DNA of 64,000 nt from Caryophanales bacterium (lineage in GTDB: Bacteria; Bacillota; Bacilli; CAJFEE01). Below, piece by piece: positions 1 through 29,324 of this stretch. The notes under the pieces are model-generated. The model was not told the origin of the DNA, did not search any database, and saw nothing but the letters and a program-made list of their open reading frames with translations. Location of the stretch: contig JAQSYP010000001.1 in NCBI GenBank assembly GCA_029256085.1, positions 644,497 to 708,496 on the forward strand, read 5' to 3'. Position 1 is the first letter of the stretch; every line of letters starts with the position of its first letter. Made by a program: the position numbers and the translations under genes.

Positions 1-95
1 GGTATGGCACAAGGGATCACCTAGATGCTATTAGTAGATTTGGAGTCTTACCAATACACAGAATGACATTCGCACCGATAAAAGACATAATTTAA
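1..95 (+). CDS. rnhB: Ribonuclease HII, C-terminal end only (partial)
   Basis: This is the last 30 codons of a gene entering from the left edge, in frame from base 3 to the TAA at 93-95. The peptide begins YGTRDHLDAISRFG and ends HRMTFAPIKDII. That matches the C-terminal signature of RNase HII (YGT-x2-H, then HR-x-[ST]-F-x-P). The enzyme removes ribonucleotides from DNA and RNA primers from hybrids. Its catalytic acidic residues lie upstream, outside the window. In B. subtilis rnhB sits just before ylqG, as here. ylqG follows after 13 bases, so the two are probably co-transcribed. Confidence 0.85.
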   Translation, partial: YGTRDHLDAISRFGVLPIHRMTFAPIKDII

Positions 96-108
96 AAGGC
101 GTGATGAA

Positions 109-1845
109 ATGCTGAACCTGAATGTTATATCACAAATAATATCTGATAAAAATAACTCAGTTTATAAATCTGAAATGTTAACAAGGCCAGGGCAATTAGT
201 TTTTGGGAAGATAACAGAAATATTTCCTGAAGGATTTGCACGAATTCAAGTTGGGGATAAATCAGTAATAGCTAAATTAGAAACCCAAGTTCAAACTGAC
301 CAATCATATATATTTTTTATTGAAAATACAGAAGATTCGCTGATAACATTAAAGGTACTAACTAGCTCAGATAAATTTGATTTAGTGGCTGCACTTAATA
401 GATTAAAAAGCGAATGGGGAATACCAAATAACTCTTCAAATATTGATAAAATACTAATATCACTTATTGAAAATGGGAAACCACTTCAGAAGGAATTTAT
501 TCAAAGTGCAGTATTAATTTTTAAAAACGGAAAGATTTCTGATGATGATATCAATACATTATTTACAATTTTAGATAAGAAGCTCACTTTAACACCTAAA
601 GTATTTGATGCAATTAAAGAAGTAATTACAAATAAATCAATGACTCAAAATATAGAAAGAATTATTAATAATTTGCAGGAAATAAAAACCCCAATTTCTA
701 TAAAATTACAAAATGTACTTAATGAGTTTTTTAAACATGGAGATTCAGGAACTAAAGCTGATCCATCAGTTAAAATTCAAAGTAATCCAGAAAATATTAA
801 TAATAAATTAGTTACTAAAGAAGTAATAATAGAAATATTTAAAAATTTACTAGACGAAAAAAATATTAAACTAACAAAAGACCAAACTGAAAATGTTATT
901 AATAGACTCATTGGAGAAATGGATTTAAGAAATACAGATGTAAAAAAACTAATTCCACTGTTAGAAACAAGAGGTAATATAAACACTAAACAAGATGTTG
1001 TTAAGGAAATCTTAAATAGTCAGAACAAACCAATTGCCGAAAATTTTCAGCAACTATTAAAAATAGTAGATTTTAAGTCGACTACTAATTCATTAGATTT
1101 AAACAAATTCATGGACAAAATACTTGAAAATATTCAACTTAAAGATAATGTTAAAACAATTGTAATTAATAAGTTGGTAGATACTTTTCAAACTGAAGAG
1201 GAAAGTTTTGAAGTTAGAATTAGAAATGCGATTATAAGTAACTTTGATAAAATGGGATTTGAATTTGAAAGTTTATTAAAATCAAAAGTAATTACGAATA
1301 GTGAAGATAAGACAATGATAAAACAACTCCTACTCGAAATTTTAACTGATGATTCTTTACCACAAAACCTAAAGAGTGAAGTGGAATCTTTAATTAATAA
1401 GATAACTGGATCTCAACTTCTATCAGTAAATAAAGATAATCCATTACAAACTATATTTACACAAATACCTTTTGTTTTTAATGACTTTAAAGGCGACTTG
1501 AAAATACAGTGGCAAGGCAAAAAAAATAGCGATGGTAAGATTGATCCTAACTTTTGTAGGATATTGTTTTATCTTGATCTATCAAACATAGGCTCAACAA
1601 TTCTAGATGTAAATGTTATTAATAAGGTTGTAAATTTACAGATTATAAATAAAAATAATATCGTTGAGAAACTAGTACTTAAAGATAATTCAATGTTGCA
1701 TAGGCAATTACAAGATATTAACTATACACTAGGCAGTGTTAGATTTTCAAATAATGATATGAAATTAAAAACTAAGAAGAATAACAATAATGAAAATTCA
1801 TTTTACAACAATTCGAATTATCAAGGTGTTGATATAAAAATATGA
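109..1845 (+). CDS. ylqG: YlqG-like protein with FliK/hook-length-control-like C-terminal domain
   Basis: This 578-residue protein is probably cytoplasmic. It has no signal peptide or membrane segment. A small beta-rich segment (about residues 28-75, GQLVFGKITEIF) precedes a long Lys/Asn/Ile-rich, mostly helical middle (about 100-440). The C-terminal block (about 455-560) has the spacing of a Flg_hook/FliK C-domain, with GDLKIQWQ, then FYLDLSNIGS, then VVNLQIINKN. The start is ATG with AAGG 9 bases upstream. It overlaps ylqH by 4 bases (ATGA), which implies translational coupling. The B. subtilis gene in this position has no known function. The FliK resemblance is inference from pattern and from its FlhB-like neighbour. 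Confidence 0.75.
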   Translation: MLNLNVISQIISDKNNSVYKSEMLTRPGQLVFGKITEIFPEGFARIQVGDKSVIAKLETQVQTDQSYIFFIENTEDSLITLKVLTSSDKFDLVAALNRLKSEWGIPNNSSNIDKILISLIENGKPLQKEFIQSAVLIFKNGKISDDDINTLFTILDKKLTLTPKVFDAIKEVITNKSMTQNIERIINNLQEIKTPISIKLQNVLNEFFKHGDSGTKADPSVKIQSNPENINNKLVTKEVIIEIFKNLLDEKNIKLTKDQTENVINRLIGEMDLRNTDVKKLIPLLETRGNINTKQDVVKEILNSQNKPIAENFQQLLKIVDFKSTTNSLDLNKFMDKILENIQLKDNVKTIVINKLVDTFQTEEESFEVRIRNAIISNFDKMGFEFESLLKSKVITNSEDKTMIKQLLLEILTDDSLPQNLKSEVESLINKITGSQLLSVNKDNPLQTIFTQIPFVFNDFKGDLKIQWQGKKNSDGKIDPNFCRILFYLDLSNIGSTILDVNVINKVVNLQIINKNNIVEKLVLKDNSMLHRQLQDINYTLGSVRFSNNDMKLKTKKNNNNENSFYNNSNYQGVDIKI

Positions 1846-2132
1846 GTAAAAGTAACGATATTAACAAACGAAAAGAAGCAATTGCTTTAAGATACGATAT
1901 TAGTTCTGATAATTCCCCAGTTGTAGTTGCAAAGGGAAAAGGAATAATTGCAGAAAGTATTCTTTCAATAGCTGAAGAGAAGAATATTCCTATCCAACGT
2001 GATGAAAGCTTAATGGAAATGTTAGGTAATTTACAGATAAACGAGTCAATTCCAGAGGAGCTGTTCAATGTAGTTGCAGAATTATTTGCATATATATACA
2101 AAATTGATAAAGAAGCCGAAAAATATATCTAA
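1842..2132 (+). CDS. ylqH: YlqH: stand-alone FlhB cytoplasmic C-domain homologue (EscU/YscU/FlhB family)
   Basis: This 96-residue soluble protein aligns end to end with the post-cleavage part of FlhB, as seen in the real FlhB encoded at 28239-29324. FlhB reads AIALKYD, then APIVVAKG, then IPENFFKAVAEILAYVYKL. YlqH reads AIALRYD, then SPVVVAKG, then IPEELFNVVAELFAYIYKI. There are no transmembrane helices. Where FlhB has the autocleaving NPTH, YlqH has NKRK, so no self-cleavage is expected. FlhB's domain sets export substrate specificity together with FliK. Pairing with the FliK-like ylqG therefore suggests a related role, but this is inference. A strong terminator begins at its last codon. Confidence 0.85.
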   Translation: MSKSNDINKRKEAIALRYDISSDNSPVVVAKGKGIIAESILSIAEEKNIPIQRDESLMEMLGNLQINESIPEELFNVVAELFAYIYKIDKEAEKYI

Positions 2133-2166
2133 AATAGGGTTAAAATCCTATTTTATTTTTTTTTTT
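2131..2166 (+). terminator. Rho-independent terminator after ylqH
   Basis: A perfect 8-bp stem AAAATAGG/CCTATTTT (2131-2138 with 2147-2154) has an 8-base loop and is followed by A and then 11 consecutive T. It overlaps the ylqH stop codon and separates the rnhB-ylqG-ylqH unit from sucCD. Confidence 0.9.
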
Positions 2167-2197
2167 GCTTTTAAAAAGTTTTTTTTAGAAATAAGTA

Positions 2198-20041: not shown

Positions 20042-21253
20042 ATGAAGGTTGATTTAGCGTTATGGGGAAACCCTGTTCAGGCATCTTCTAATAGTTCCTT
20101 GCAATCAGCATCAGTACCAGTCAATTTTTTTAACATGCTTCAATTGATTCAAGTTGATCCCACTACTTCATCAGCATTTGAAGATCAGGCAATCTCAATT
20201 GAACAGTTGTTTACTAAACTAAAAGAAATATTAAGTAAAAGTACAACTGAATTAGTAAAAACAACCGAAACTACTTCTCCAAAAGAAGTCGATAGTCAAG
20301 ATGAAAATAACCTAAATTTTGAAACATGGTTTATTCAGTTAACTACCCTAATTAATAAAATATTTGATCAAATAAGCAATGATAATAATCAGACTACCAA
20401 TGTAGATGTAGAAGCTAATATAACGAATATATTTTCTAGTAATGATAAATTGAAAATTTTCTTTAGTTCTTTAAACCCAACTCAAATTAAAGAATTAGAA
20501 AAAATAATCAATAGTATCAAAGACACTCTAGTAAAAAATGACTCTATTAAATTTGATCCTAAATTAATTGAAATCACCAAAGCTTTTGAAGAATATAATC
20601 CTAAAAAGAATAATCCAATACAGAATAATGTAAATCATAAATCGACTATAGTTGAGAAGGTTGTTGAAGTAATAAGGGAACTTCAACCAAATAAAGAAGT
20701 AAAACAAACCGAAATTAAACAGGTAATAAACATACTTGATAAATTTAGTACTGGGCAGCAGCTTAATAGAATTCAGCAGTTTTCTATTTTCACTCAAACT
20801 AGAGGAAATGAATTAAACACTGAAAACCTTATAAAACAATTTGAAAACATTTTATCATCAAGTATTATTAGTAAGTCTGCAAACCTTCAAAAATTAGTAG
20901 TTAAGTTATATCCAGAAAGTCTTGGTTCTCTAAGAATTGAGATATTACAGAATTCAGAGGGAATAACTGCAAGAATTCAAGCATCTACGCAACAAGTAAA
21001 ACAGCTTATTGATGCAAACCTACACACTCTAAAGCATTCACTAGCAGCACAAAATTTGAATGTAGAAAAGTTTGAGGTCACTCAGGCAATGAATCAAATG
21101 TTTGATAAAGGTTTACCAGATAGAGAGAATTTAAATCAGAATAATCAAAACTCTAGGCAACAACAGCAAAACTCAAAGGAAGAAGATTCAGAAAAGTCGT
21201 TTGAAACCTTCCTTAATGAACTAAAAGAAGTAGAAGGTGATAATATTGGCTAA
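20042..21253 (+). CDS. fliK: Flagellar hook-length control protein FliK
   Basis: FliK measures hook length and triggers the export switch through FlhB. The N-terminal two thirds are low-complexity, Asn/Thr/Lys-rich and presumably unfolded for export. The C-terminal Flg_hook domain is clear (LVVKLYPESLGSLRIEILQ, about residues 283-301, then ITARIQASTQQVKQLI). The tail is Gln/Asn-rich. At 403 residues it is shorter than the B. subtilis protein (487). Ruler regions vary widely. It overlaps flgD by 8 bases. Confidence 0.93.
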   Translation: MKVDLALWGNPVQASSNSSLQSASVPVNFFNMLQLIQVDPTTSSAFEDQAISIEQLFTKLKEILSKSTTELVKTTETTSPKEVDSQDENNLNFETWFIQLTTLINKIFDQISNDNNQTTNVDVEANITNIFSSNDKLKIFFSSLNPTQIKELEKIINSIKDTLVKNDSIKFDPKLIEITKAFEEYNPKKNNPIQNNVNHKSTIVEKVVEVIRELQPNKEVKQTEIKQVINILDKFSTGQQLNRIQQFSIFTQTRGNELNTENLIKQFENILSSSIISKSANLQKLVVKLYPESLGSLRIEILQNSEGITARIQASTQQVKQLIDANLHTLKHSLAAQNLNVEKFEVTQAMNQMFDKGLPDRENLNQNNQNSRQQQQNSKEEDSEKSFETFLNELKEVEGDNIG

Positions 21254-27457: not shown

Positions 27458-28237
27458 ATGGATGCATTAGTTGCTAATTTCCCAACACTACTACTAGTCA
27501 TTACTAGAATTTCTTCATTTTTTGTTACTGTTCCATTATTTTCATATAGAACTATACCAAATAATTTAAAGATTGGGTTAGCGGTTCTGTTATCTTTTCT
27601 AGTATCTACATCGATGAAATTGCCTGTTGTAGAAATCGATGATGTGTATTTAATGTTAGTCTTAAAGGAAGCAATGGTTGGATTATCAATTGGCTTAATT
27701 GCATTTATAATGATGTCTGCAATTCAGATAGCTGGCGGATTTATAGATTTTCAGATGGGATTTGCAATCGTTAACGTAATTGATCCCCAAACCGGTGCAC
27801 AAGGGCCGATTATGGGTCAGTACTTTTATGTAATTGCACTACTACTATTACTAACATTTAATGGACATCATTTATTACTTGATGGAATTTACTATAGCTA
27901 CAAAATTGTACCTATTACTAGTGTTGCAAATTTTCCTTTTGGAAGTGAACATTTAGTAGAGTACTTTGTAAGAACATTTAATTCAATGTTTATAATAGCT
28001 TTTCAAATGGCTGCACCTGTAGTAGGGACTTTATTTTTAGTTGATCTAGCCTTAGGTATAGTAGCAAGAACCGTACCACAACTCAACATCTTTGTTGTTG
28101 GGCTACCATTAAAAATACTTGTAAGTTTAGTTTTAATAGCTATTTCTATGTCAGCTTTTTCACTTGTATTAAATAACTTATTCCAACAAGTGATAGAAGT
28201 AATGCGTGGACTCATGGAAATAATTGGAGGAGTATAA
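27458..28237 (+). CDS. fliR: Flagellar export gate protein FliR
   Basis: FliR is a 259-residue polytopic membrane protein of the export gate. It has six or so hydrophobic segments. Typical blocks are RISSFFVTVPLFSYRTIPNN near the N-terminus, GFIDFQMGFAIVNVIDPQTG (about residues 92-111) and NIFVVGLPLKILVSL near the C-terminus. It ends one base before flhB. Confidence 0.97.
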   Translation: MDALVANFPTLLLVITRISSFFVTVPLFSYRTIPNNLKIGLAVLLSFLVSTSMKLPVVEIDDVYLMLVLKEAMVGLSIGLIAFIMMSAIQIAGGFIDFQMGFAIVNVIDPQTGAQGPIMGQYFYVIALLLLLTFNGHHLLLDGIYYSYKIVPITSVANFPFGSEHLVEYFVRTFNSMFIIAFQMAAPVVGTLFLVDLALGIVARTVPQLNIFVVGLPLKILVSLVLIAISMSAFSLVLNNLFQQVIEVMRGLMEIIGGV

Positions 28238-28238
28238 C

Positions 28239-29324
28239 ATGCTTAAAATCCAGCTGGATCTTCAGTTTTTTTCAGGCGAAAAGACTGAAAAAGCTACCCC
28301 TAAGCGTAGAGAAGACTCTCGCAAAAAAGGCCAGGTAGCCAAAAGTGCTGATTTAAACACGGCATTTATACTCTTCTTCTGTTTTTTATTCTTATTTTTT
28401 CTAGGAAATTTCTTTGAAAAAAATATAATAAATTTTTTTAAAATATTTCTTGAACAATACCTTGTAGTTGATATTTCAAATAATAATTTAAGACCAGTAA
28501 TTTACTTCATCGCTAAAAGTCTCTTTGTAATATTAGGACCTGTGTTATTAATAGCGTTTATTAGTGCAACAATAATTAACTATGTGCAAGTTGGTTTTAT
28601 TTTTTCAACAGAACCATTAACACCTAAGTTAAATAAATTAGACCCGATTCAAGGTTTTAAAAAGATTTACTCGATGAGAGCGTTAGTTGAATTAGCAAAA
28701 TCTATTTTAAAAATTTCTTTTGTTGGTTTTGTTGCTTTTTATGTAATATGGTCAAATATCGATAAGATACTATTACTTTCACAAAAATCTGCTATCGATA
28801 CTTTTAGAGTAATTTATAAGTTAGCAGTGCAAACAGGACTATATTCATCAGGCGCATTATTGTTTCTTTCAATTTTTGATTATGCATATCAAAAGTTTGA
28901 CTTTGAAAAAAACATTAAAATGTCTAAACAGGATATTAAGGATGAATATAAAAAGTCAGAGGGAGATCCCCTAATAAAATCGAAAATTAAGCAAAAGCAA
29001 AGAGAAATGGCTATGAGGAGAATGATGCAAGAAATTCCTAAAGCTGATGTTGTTATAACAAACCCAACCCATTTTGCAATTGCGTTAAAATATGATGAAA
29101 ATAATGGTGATGCACCTATAGTTGTGGCAAAAGGTGTGGACTATTTAGCATTAAAAATAAAAAAAATAGCTAAAGAACATGAAGTGGTTATGGTAGAAAA
29201 CAGACCGCTTGCAAGAGCATTATATGATCAAGCAGAGATTGGCAAACAAATACCTGAGAATTTCTTTAAGGCAGTTGCTGAAATTCTAGCTTATGTTTAT
29301 AAATTAAAAAAGAAAATAAATTAA
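28239..29324 (+). CDS. flhB: Flagellar export switch protein FlhB
   Basis: FlhB sets export specificity (rod/hook first, then filament). The N-terminal KTEKATPKRREDSRKKGQVA is the family signature. Four transmembrane segments follow (about residues 35-205), then a cytoplasmic domain. The autocleavage site NPTH is intact in VVITNPTHFAIALKYDE. The ATG at 28239 was chosen because GGAGGAG lies just upstream. The in-frame TTG at 28224 overlaps that site. The product is 361 residues, equal to B. subtilis. Confidence 0.96.
   Translation: MLKIQLDLQFFSGEKTEKATPKRREDSRKKGQVAKSADLNTAFILFFCFLFLFFLGNFFEKNIINFFKIFLEQYLVVDISNNNLRPVIYFIAKSLFVILGPVLLIAFISATIINYVQVGFIFSTEPLTPKLNKLDPIQGFKKIYSMRALVELAKSILKISFVGFVAFYVIWSNIDKILLLSQKSAIDTFRVIYKLAVQTGLYSSGALLFLSIFDYAYQKFDFEKNIKMSKQDIKDEYKKSEGDPLIKSKIKQKQREMAMRRMMQEIPKADVVITNPTHFAIALKYDENNGDAPIVVAKGVDYLALKIKKIAKEHEVVMVENRPLARALYDQAEIGKQIPENFFKAVAEILAYVYKLKKKIN

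What the first reader, a model, noticed from the sequence alone, without database searches (positions are those of the whole stretch)
109..2132. Orphan FliK-like/FlhB-C-like pair ylqG-ylqH, a possible uncharacterised specificity-switch module
YlqG ends in a beta-rich block spaced like the FliK Flg_hook domain and overlaps ylqH by ATGA. FliK and FlhB-CC are the two partners of the flagellar substrate switch. A second pair with both functions, in a different operon next to rnhB and ended by its own terminator, suggests a conserved but unstudied module. This is the best candidate for an undescribed system here.
Basis: inference. Interest (0 to 1): 0.6.

Follow-up and report, generated by a model that had tools for sequence, protein, structure and literature searches.

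The report
Second FliK–FlhB-tail pair for flagellar switching
Two tightly coupled genes outside the main flagellar operon encode a second copy of the two partners that tell a bacterium to stop building the flagellar hook and start the filament; the pair is ancient, widespread and almost confined to genomes with a flagellar export gate, but what it does has not been tested.

Summary
ylqG (109-1845) and ylqH (1842-2132) are real, ATGA-overlapping genes between rnhB and sucC, closed by a terminator hairpin. YlqH is FlhB's post-cleavage domain alone (no membrane part, no NPTH site). YlqG ends in a true FliK switch domain (profile-profile 95%, P 2e-8; 42 of 70 homologues hit Pfam Flg_hook). The pair recurs, mostly with the same overlap, across Bacillota, Nitrospirota, Campylobacterota, Desulfobacterota-type, Aquificota and Planctomycetota genomes. 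In a Bacillota survey YlqH almost never occurs without a flagellar export gate. (2) YlqG has an N-terminal beta domain absent from all 61 canonical FliKs examined. (3) All eight duplicate pairs found sit beside fliS and flagellin. YlqH homologues are known (FlhX; H. pylori HP1575 'spare part') and 'flhX-fliK' has been mentioned in passing, so this is a new variant of a known kind. Best reading: a soluble FliK/FlhB-CC complex acting on the export switch. That the tail supplies YlqH's missing first strand is attractive but unproven.

The parts
1..95 (+). 3' end of rnhB (ribonuclease HII), the gene upstream of ylqG
   Evidence: read directly from the sequence; RnhB neighbours the pair in 46 of 59 and 49 of 80 homologous loci
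109..1845 (+). ylqG: FliK paralogue, 578 aa
   Evidence: ORF; C-terminal profile-profile match to FliK; separates from canonical FliK in trees
184..360 (+). YlqG residues 26-84: conserved N-terminal beta-rich domain that defines the YlqG family
   Evidence: profile found in 114 of 138 YlqG and in 0 of 61 canonical FliK proteins; no confident Pfam or PDB sequence match
1552..1758 (+). YlqG residues 482-550: Flg_hook (T3S4, FliK switch) domain
   Evidence: hhalign 95.3%, P 2.4e-8 over 69 columns; AF2 models of homologues match FliK-C 2RRL and PscP 5CUK
1825..1842 (+). YlqG C-terminal tail GVDIKI-COOH, the FliK-type switch tail
   Evidence: tail motif in 124 of 138 YlqG against about 1.2% per internal position; E. 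coli FliK ends GVDIFA
1842..1845 (+). ATGA stop/start overlap (translational coupling)
   Evidence: same -4 overlap in 100 homologous pairs
1842..2132 (+). ylqH: FlhB-CC (post-cleavage domain) paralogue, 96 aa, no membrane domain and no NPTH
   Evidence: PF01312 1.1e-17 at profile 262-335 of 335; TIGR00789 3e-26; PDB FlhB-C chains; separates from FlhB-CC in a tree with support 0.997
2130..2167 (+). intrinsic terminator: 11-bp A/U-rich hairpin and T-run
   Evidence: RNA fold -9.6 kcal/mol, z -3.7
20042..21253 (+). canonical fliK in the flagellar operon of the same window, for comparison; lacks the tail (ends KEVEGDNIG)
   Evidence: only Flg_hook hit above cut-off in the genome, 5e-18
28224..29324 (+). 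canonical flhB in the same window, with ADVVITN|PTH autocleavage site, for comparison
   Evidence: sequence; second YlqH-like match in the genome

Best explanation
ylqGH encodes a second, soluble copy of the flagellar substrate-specificity switch pair. YlqG is a FliK paralogue that keeps the FliK switch domain and the FliK switch tail. YlqH is the part of FlhB that lies after the autocleavage site, made as a separate protein that never needs cleavage. The two are made in fixed stoichiometry by translational coupling and most likely bind each other as FliK-C binds cleaved FlhB-CC, giving a preformed complex like the one FliK is proposed to make when it ejects FlhB-CC from the export gate. Most likely function: YlqH is an exchangeable FlhB-CC ('spare part') whose docking on, or removal from, FlhB-CN is governed by YlqG, which sets or holds the early/late export state. 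Shown here: the homology of both proteins, fixed pairing, coupling, tail conservation, near-confinement to genomes with a flagellar export gate, and duplicate pairs beside fliS and flagellin. Inferred: that they bind each other, that YlqH occupies FlhB, and the direction of the effect.
For: FliK domain. FlhB-CC identity without membrane part or NPTH. Fixed pairing and -4 overlap across phyla. Co-occurrence with FlhB/FlhA in Bacillota. Pairing of YlqG with YlqH: 40 of 44 FlhB-only genomes have exactly one Flg_hook protein and none has two, whereas most YlqGH genomes tested in several phyla have two. All eight duplicate pairs lie beside fliS and flagellin, one also beside fliD/fliT-like genes. 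The tail equals that of E. [quoted passage not shown] FliK-dependent ejection of cleaved FlhB-C is the current model of the switch (PMC13344023). H. pylori HP1575 acts as a 'spare part' when FlhB-CC is deleted (title of Wand et al. 2006, seen in a reference list).
Against: No direct evidence of binding. In the fusion model the tail has pLDDT under 50, and inter-protein covariation gave no signal above background. At least 72 surveyed Bacillota genomes with a full-length FlhB lack YlqH, so the pair is not essential for switching in general. The location between rnhB and sucC gives no flagellar hint by itself. Three MAG-like assemblies have YlqH and no FlhA or FlhB match.
Confidence: 0.45

Rival explanations
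1. Decoy or lock: YlqH is a soluble FlhB-CC mimic that occupies the switch domain and tail of FliK and so prevents premature switching, a counterpart of enteric Fluke (Flk); YlqG titrates YlqH and sets the threshold.
For: YlqH keeps the FlhB-CC fold but cannot be part of the membrane gate by itself. Switching is held back by inhibitory components in Salmonella (PMC13344023). Duplicate pairs lie in late-gene neighbourhoods.
Against: In the window and in B. subtilis the canonical FliK has lost the usual tail, so its grip on a FlhB-CC mimic may be weak. YlqG, not FliK, is the fixed partner of YlqH.
Confidence: 0.2
2. Split switch: in these lineages FliK mainly measures the hook and YlqG supplies the tail that flips the switch, with YlqH as its carrier or chaperone.
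For: In genomes without the pair, 25 of 29 FliKs end in the strict tail motif (29 of 29 relaxed); in Bacilli with the pair only 8 of 20 do (13 of 20 relaxed), Fisher p about 0.001. YlqG keeps the tail in 124 of 138.
Against: Species are not independent data points, and the compared groups are different clades. Some FliKs keep the tail although YlqGH is present. Bacillaceae FliKs share another conserved ending (F..L..EEV) that may do the same job. The motif classes were drawn up after seeing the tails.
Confidence: 0.2
3. Not a flagellar module in function: a housekeeping or decaying pair carried along with rnhB and sucCD or yraN-comM.
For: Most loci lie in the rnhB-ylqG-ylqH-yraN/sucC neighbourhood; a few assemblies have it without FlhA/FlhB matches; Lentibacillus populi has a broken ylqG.
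Against: In the Bacillota survey YlqH without an FlhB or FlhA match was found in only three genomes; all eight duplicate pairs sit beside fliS and flagellin; the tail is conserved across phyla.
Confidence: 0.1

Closest known systems
FliK (flagellar hook-length control protein; Flg_hook, PF02120)
   Same: C-terminal switch domain and the same type of C-terminal tail as E. coli FliK (GVDIFA)
   Different: N-terminal beta domain not found in 61 canonical FliKs; encoded outside the flagellar operon and coupled to ylqH; forms its own group in a tree (0 of 74 misplaced, support 0.66; core-only 1 misplaced, support 0.93)
FlhB C-terminal domain after the N|PTH autocleavage site (FlhB-CC, FlhB-CCD)
   Same: sequence and predicted fold of FlhB-CC
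   Different: no membrane domain, no NPTH, no first beta strand; an independent gene and a separate branch (support 0.997)
FlhX / Helicobacter pylori HP1575 ('spare part' for FlhB-CC)
   Same: stand-alone FlhB-CC homologue; Campylobacterota relatives (Aliarcobacter, Sulfurospirillum) carry the same pair with the tail; 'flhX-fliK' named for Nitratiruptor (PMC9321776)
   Different: published work seen here treats FlhX alone; I found no description of its obligate FliK-paralogue partner, the tail, or the duplicate pair beside fliS and flagellin
T3SS switch proteins PscP/YscP with PscU/YscU
   Same: fold of the switch domain (5CUK) and of the U-protein C domain
   Different: those act in injectisomes; here the association found is with flagella

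Membership tests
FliK / Flg_hook (PF02120) | Flg_hook switch domain | tested here: met
   hhalign 95.3%, P 2.4e-8; 42 of 70 homologues by hmmscan; the window protein itself is below the Pfam cut-off
FliK / Flg_hook (PF02120) | C-terminal tail of the FliK kind (hydrophobic-[DNS]-hydrophobic-x-hydrophobic-COOH) | tested here: met
   124 of 138 YlqG; E. coli FliK GVDIFA; 25 of 29 FliKs of genomes without the pair
FliK / Flg_hook (PF02120) | groups with canonical FliK rather than apart (orthology) | tested here: not met
   42 YlqG and 32 FliK separate without a misplacement, support 0.66; with core columns only, 1 misplaced, support 0.93: a paralogue, not an orthologue
FliK / Flg_hook (PF02120) | secreted ruler that sets hook length | not testable with these tools
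   needs mutants and secretion assays
FlhB | N-terminal transmembrane domain | tested here: not met
   96 aa; matches only profile positions 262-335 of 335
FlhB | NPTH autocleavage site | tested here: not met
   absent; YlqH aligns from just after the PTH of FlhB
FlhB | FlhB-CC fold | tested here: met
   PF01312, TIGR00789, PDB FlhB-C sequence matches; homologue models
FlhX / HP1575-type spare part | stand-alone FlhB-CC homologue beside a full FlhB in the same genome | tested here: met
   G000 has both; most survey genomes with a YlqH-type match have at least two matches
FlhX / HP1575-type spare part | can replace a deleted FlhB-CC | not testable with these tools
   reported for HP1575 (title cited in PMC3040844); not tested for YlqH

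The most novel reading that the evidence does not exclude
The YlqG tail (GVDIRI-COOH) donates the beta strand that YlqH lacks. In FlhB this strand (ADVVITN, ending at the autocleavage site) stays on the membrane-bound FlhB-CN. The gene boundary between ylqG and ylqH would then correspond to the FlhB cleavage point, and YlqG-YlqH would be a pre-cleaved switch. By extension, FliK would flip the switch by strand displacement: its last residues take the place of FlhB-CN's strand and pull FlhB-CC out.
Probability: 0.25. Interest if true: 0.85.

Novelty: new variant of a known kind. Interest (0 to 1): 0.6.

Why it matters
How FliK flips the flagellar export switch is a long-standing question. The 2026 model says that the last five residues of FliK engage and eject the cleaved FlhB domain (PMC13344023). 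ylqGH looks like a natural, soluble, co-expressed version of that complex, present in B. subtilis and in many phyla, so it offers a tractable system for solving the complex and testing the model. It also gives the little-studied FlhX family a fixed partner and a defined tail motif to mutate.

Tried and rejected
Single-sequence Pfam and NCBIfam scans of YlqG: nothing significant; solved by profile-profile comparison. First fusion alignment (A3) put YlqG rows on YlqH columns and was discarded. Second AF2 job (A5, L171; tails correctly aligned): the Flg_hook domain is well predicted; the tail has pLDDT under 50. VIA-align maps model residues from 126 on to the strand just before the cleavage asparagine of uncleaved FlhB/EscU chains, but the natural linker is short (about 16 residues), and judged from the residue ranges alone the register may be one off a D-to-D alignment; suggestive only. 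Inter-protein mutual information on 135 pairs: no excess for the tail. YlqG N-terminal domain: only sub-threshold hits to S1 and NfeD, none in PDB sequences. Natural gene fusion: none convincing; Lentibacillus populi L119 looks like a broken gene. Presence in genomes without flagella: three possible cases only, not followed to closely related isolates.

Full report
What is there. The window begins in the 3' end of rnhB. ylqG (109-1845, 578 aa) and ylqH (1842-2132, 96 aa) follow, overlapping by ATGA, then a strong A/U-rich terminator hairpin (-9.6 kcal/mol, z -3.7) and sucCD. The canonical fliK (20042-21253) and flhB (28224-29324, with ADVVITN|PTH) are in the large flagellar operon of the same window. 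The genome is 2.63 Mb.

YlqH. It matches the last 74 positions of the FlhB family (PF01312 1.1e-17), TIGR00789 (3e-26) and FlhB-C chains in the PDB. It begins just after the point where FlhB is cleaved and has no NPTH and no membrane part. In a tree of 82 YlqH and 20 FlhB-CC sequences the two separate completely with support 0.997 (the FlhB set is from Bacillota only).

YlqG is a FliK paralogue. By itself its C-terminus is only a 0.09 hit to Flg_hook. With 60 homologues against a FliK alignment, hhalign gives 95.3% and P 2.4e-8 over 69 columns, against 0.2% for an FlhB control. 42 of 70 homologous C-termini hit Flg_hook directly, best 3.6e-13. AF2 models of two homologues match FliK-C (2RRL) and the PscP switch domain (5CUK). 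Trees place 42 YlqG and 32 canonical FliK from several phyla on opposite sides of one branch (0 misplaced, support 0.66; with the core alone 1 misplaced, support 0.93). YlqG also has an N-terminal beta-rich domain of about 60 residues, found in 114 of 138 YlqG and in none of 61 canonical FliKs (17, 14, 30); it has no confident relative.

Pairing and distribution. Among 59 Bacillota loci and 80 named loci (Bacillota, Nitrospirota, Deltaproteobacteria, Aquificota, Campylobacterota, Planctomycetota, Margulisbacteria, Hydrogenedentota), ylqH is almost always directly preceded by a ylqG, and 100 pairs have the same -4 overlap. In a survey of 398 Bacillota genomes 327 have an FlhB-CC-type match. By my count of that table 96 of these have a single match. 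Re-examination of 80 single-match genomes (77 of them from the survey) found 75 in FlhB-size frames; of the five short frames one lies directly beside flhA and is FlhB, one genome has FlhA, and three (G124, G362, G461) have no FlhA or FlhB match. Of 44 FlhB-only genomes, 40 have one Flg_hook protein and none has two, while most YlqGH genomes tested across phyla have two. So the pair moves as a unit and, in Bacillota, tracks flagellar export almost completely.

Duplicate pairs. Eight loci carry an additional pair (L073, L083, L085-L090). All eight have fliS and flagellin beside them; Pfam confirms FliS in four and flagellin in three of those checked, and FliD-C and a FliT-like protein beside one. 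These copies have the tail and, in six of eight, the ATGA overlap. This ties the pair to filament-stage genes independently of the rnhB neighbourhood.

The tail. 124 of 138 YlqG end in hydrophobic-[DNS]-hydrophobic-x-hydrophobic-COOH; 100 end in D-hydrophobic-[RK]-hydrophobic, against 0.05% per internal position. E. coli FliK ends NSGVDIFA, and FliKs of other phyla end in GLVNIFA, ALNLFA or VLDLIA. In genomes without ylqGH the FliK tail is kept in 25 of 29 by the strict pattern and 29 of 29 by a relaxed one; in Bacilli with ylqGH, in 8 of 20 and 13 of 20 (p about 0.001). That comparison is between clades and is uncorrected for kinship, and the pattern was defined after looking at the tails. 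In Salmonella the last five FliK residues are needed for switching and fliK(A405V) is a suppressor (PMC10965912). The current model is that these residues engage and eject cleaved FlhB-C (PMC13344023).

Mechanism. YlqG thus carries the two parts of FliK known to act on FlhB-CC, and its coupled partner is a FlhB-CC. The simplest reading is that they bind each other and act on the export gate. H. pylori HP1575 was reported as a spare part for deleted FlhB-CC (title in the reference list of PMC3040844), which favours YlqH as an exchangeable FlhB-CC. Whether the pair promotes, resets or delays the switch cannot be told from sequence; decoy/lock and split-switch models are listed as rivals.

The strand idea. 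FlhB-CN ends in a strand with the same pattern (A-D-V-V-I) just before the cut; YlqH lacks this strand and YlqG ends with a look-alike. A chance match of the pattern is about 1% per register, so this alone is weak. A read-through fusion of a Thermacetogenium pair (stop read as Ser) was modelled: the tail falls in the place of that strand by structural alignment, but with pLDDT under 50 and a short natural linker. Covariation gave nothing. I give this 0.25.

Known or new. FlhX is a recognised flagellar component in Campylobacterota and Actinobacteria surveys (PMC9321776, PMC10746217), and 'flhX-fliK' is named once for Nitratiruptor. For YlqG only one paper was found, where it appears as a passenger mutation in evolved swarming isolates (PMC11523185). 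The library holds only openly licensed papers, so earlier descriptions may exist. I rate it a new variant of a known kind.

Noticed in passing
window 20042-21253 and FliKs of loci L092-L111, L207, L210: Canonical FliKs of Bacillaceae-type genomes share a different C-terminal ending (F..L..EEV or similar) instead of the hydrophobic-D-hydrophobic-x-hydrophobic tail; the window's own FliK ends KEVEGDNIG.
   Followed up: partly
window 184-360 (YlqG residues 26-84): Unassigned N-terminal beta-rich domain conserved in YlqG across phyla, with only sub-threshold similarity to S1/OB-type and NfeD domains.
   Followed up: partly
L073, L083, L085-L090: Additional ylqG-ylqH-like pair beside fliS and flagellin genes, with YlqG-like proteins of about 600 to at least 1486 aa.
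   Followed up: partly
L119:4763-5282: Lentibacillus populi: ylqG appears broken or rearranged, with a tail-like GQGVDFLH in the same open frame as ylqH.
   Followed up: no
L192 (G124), L193 (G362), L194 (G461): ylqGH or its remains in assemblies with no FlhA or FlhB match; in L194 ylqG is split. Could be recent loss of flagella or assembly gaps.
   Followed up: partly
L071, L076, L078, L091: A family of Bacillota in which the ylqG-like gene upstream of ylqH lacks the C-terminal tail.
   Followed up: no
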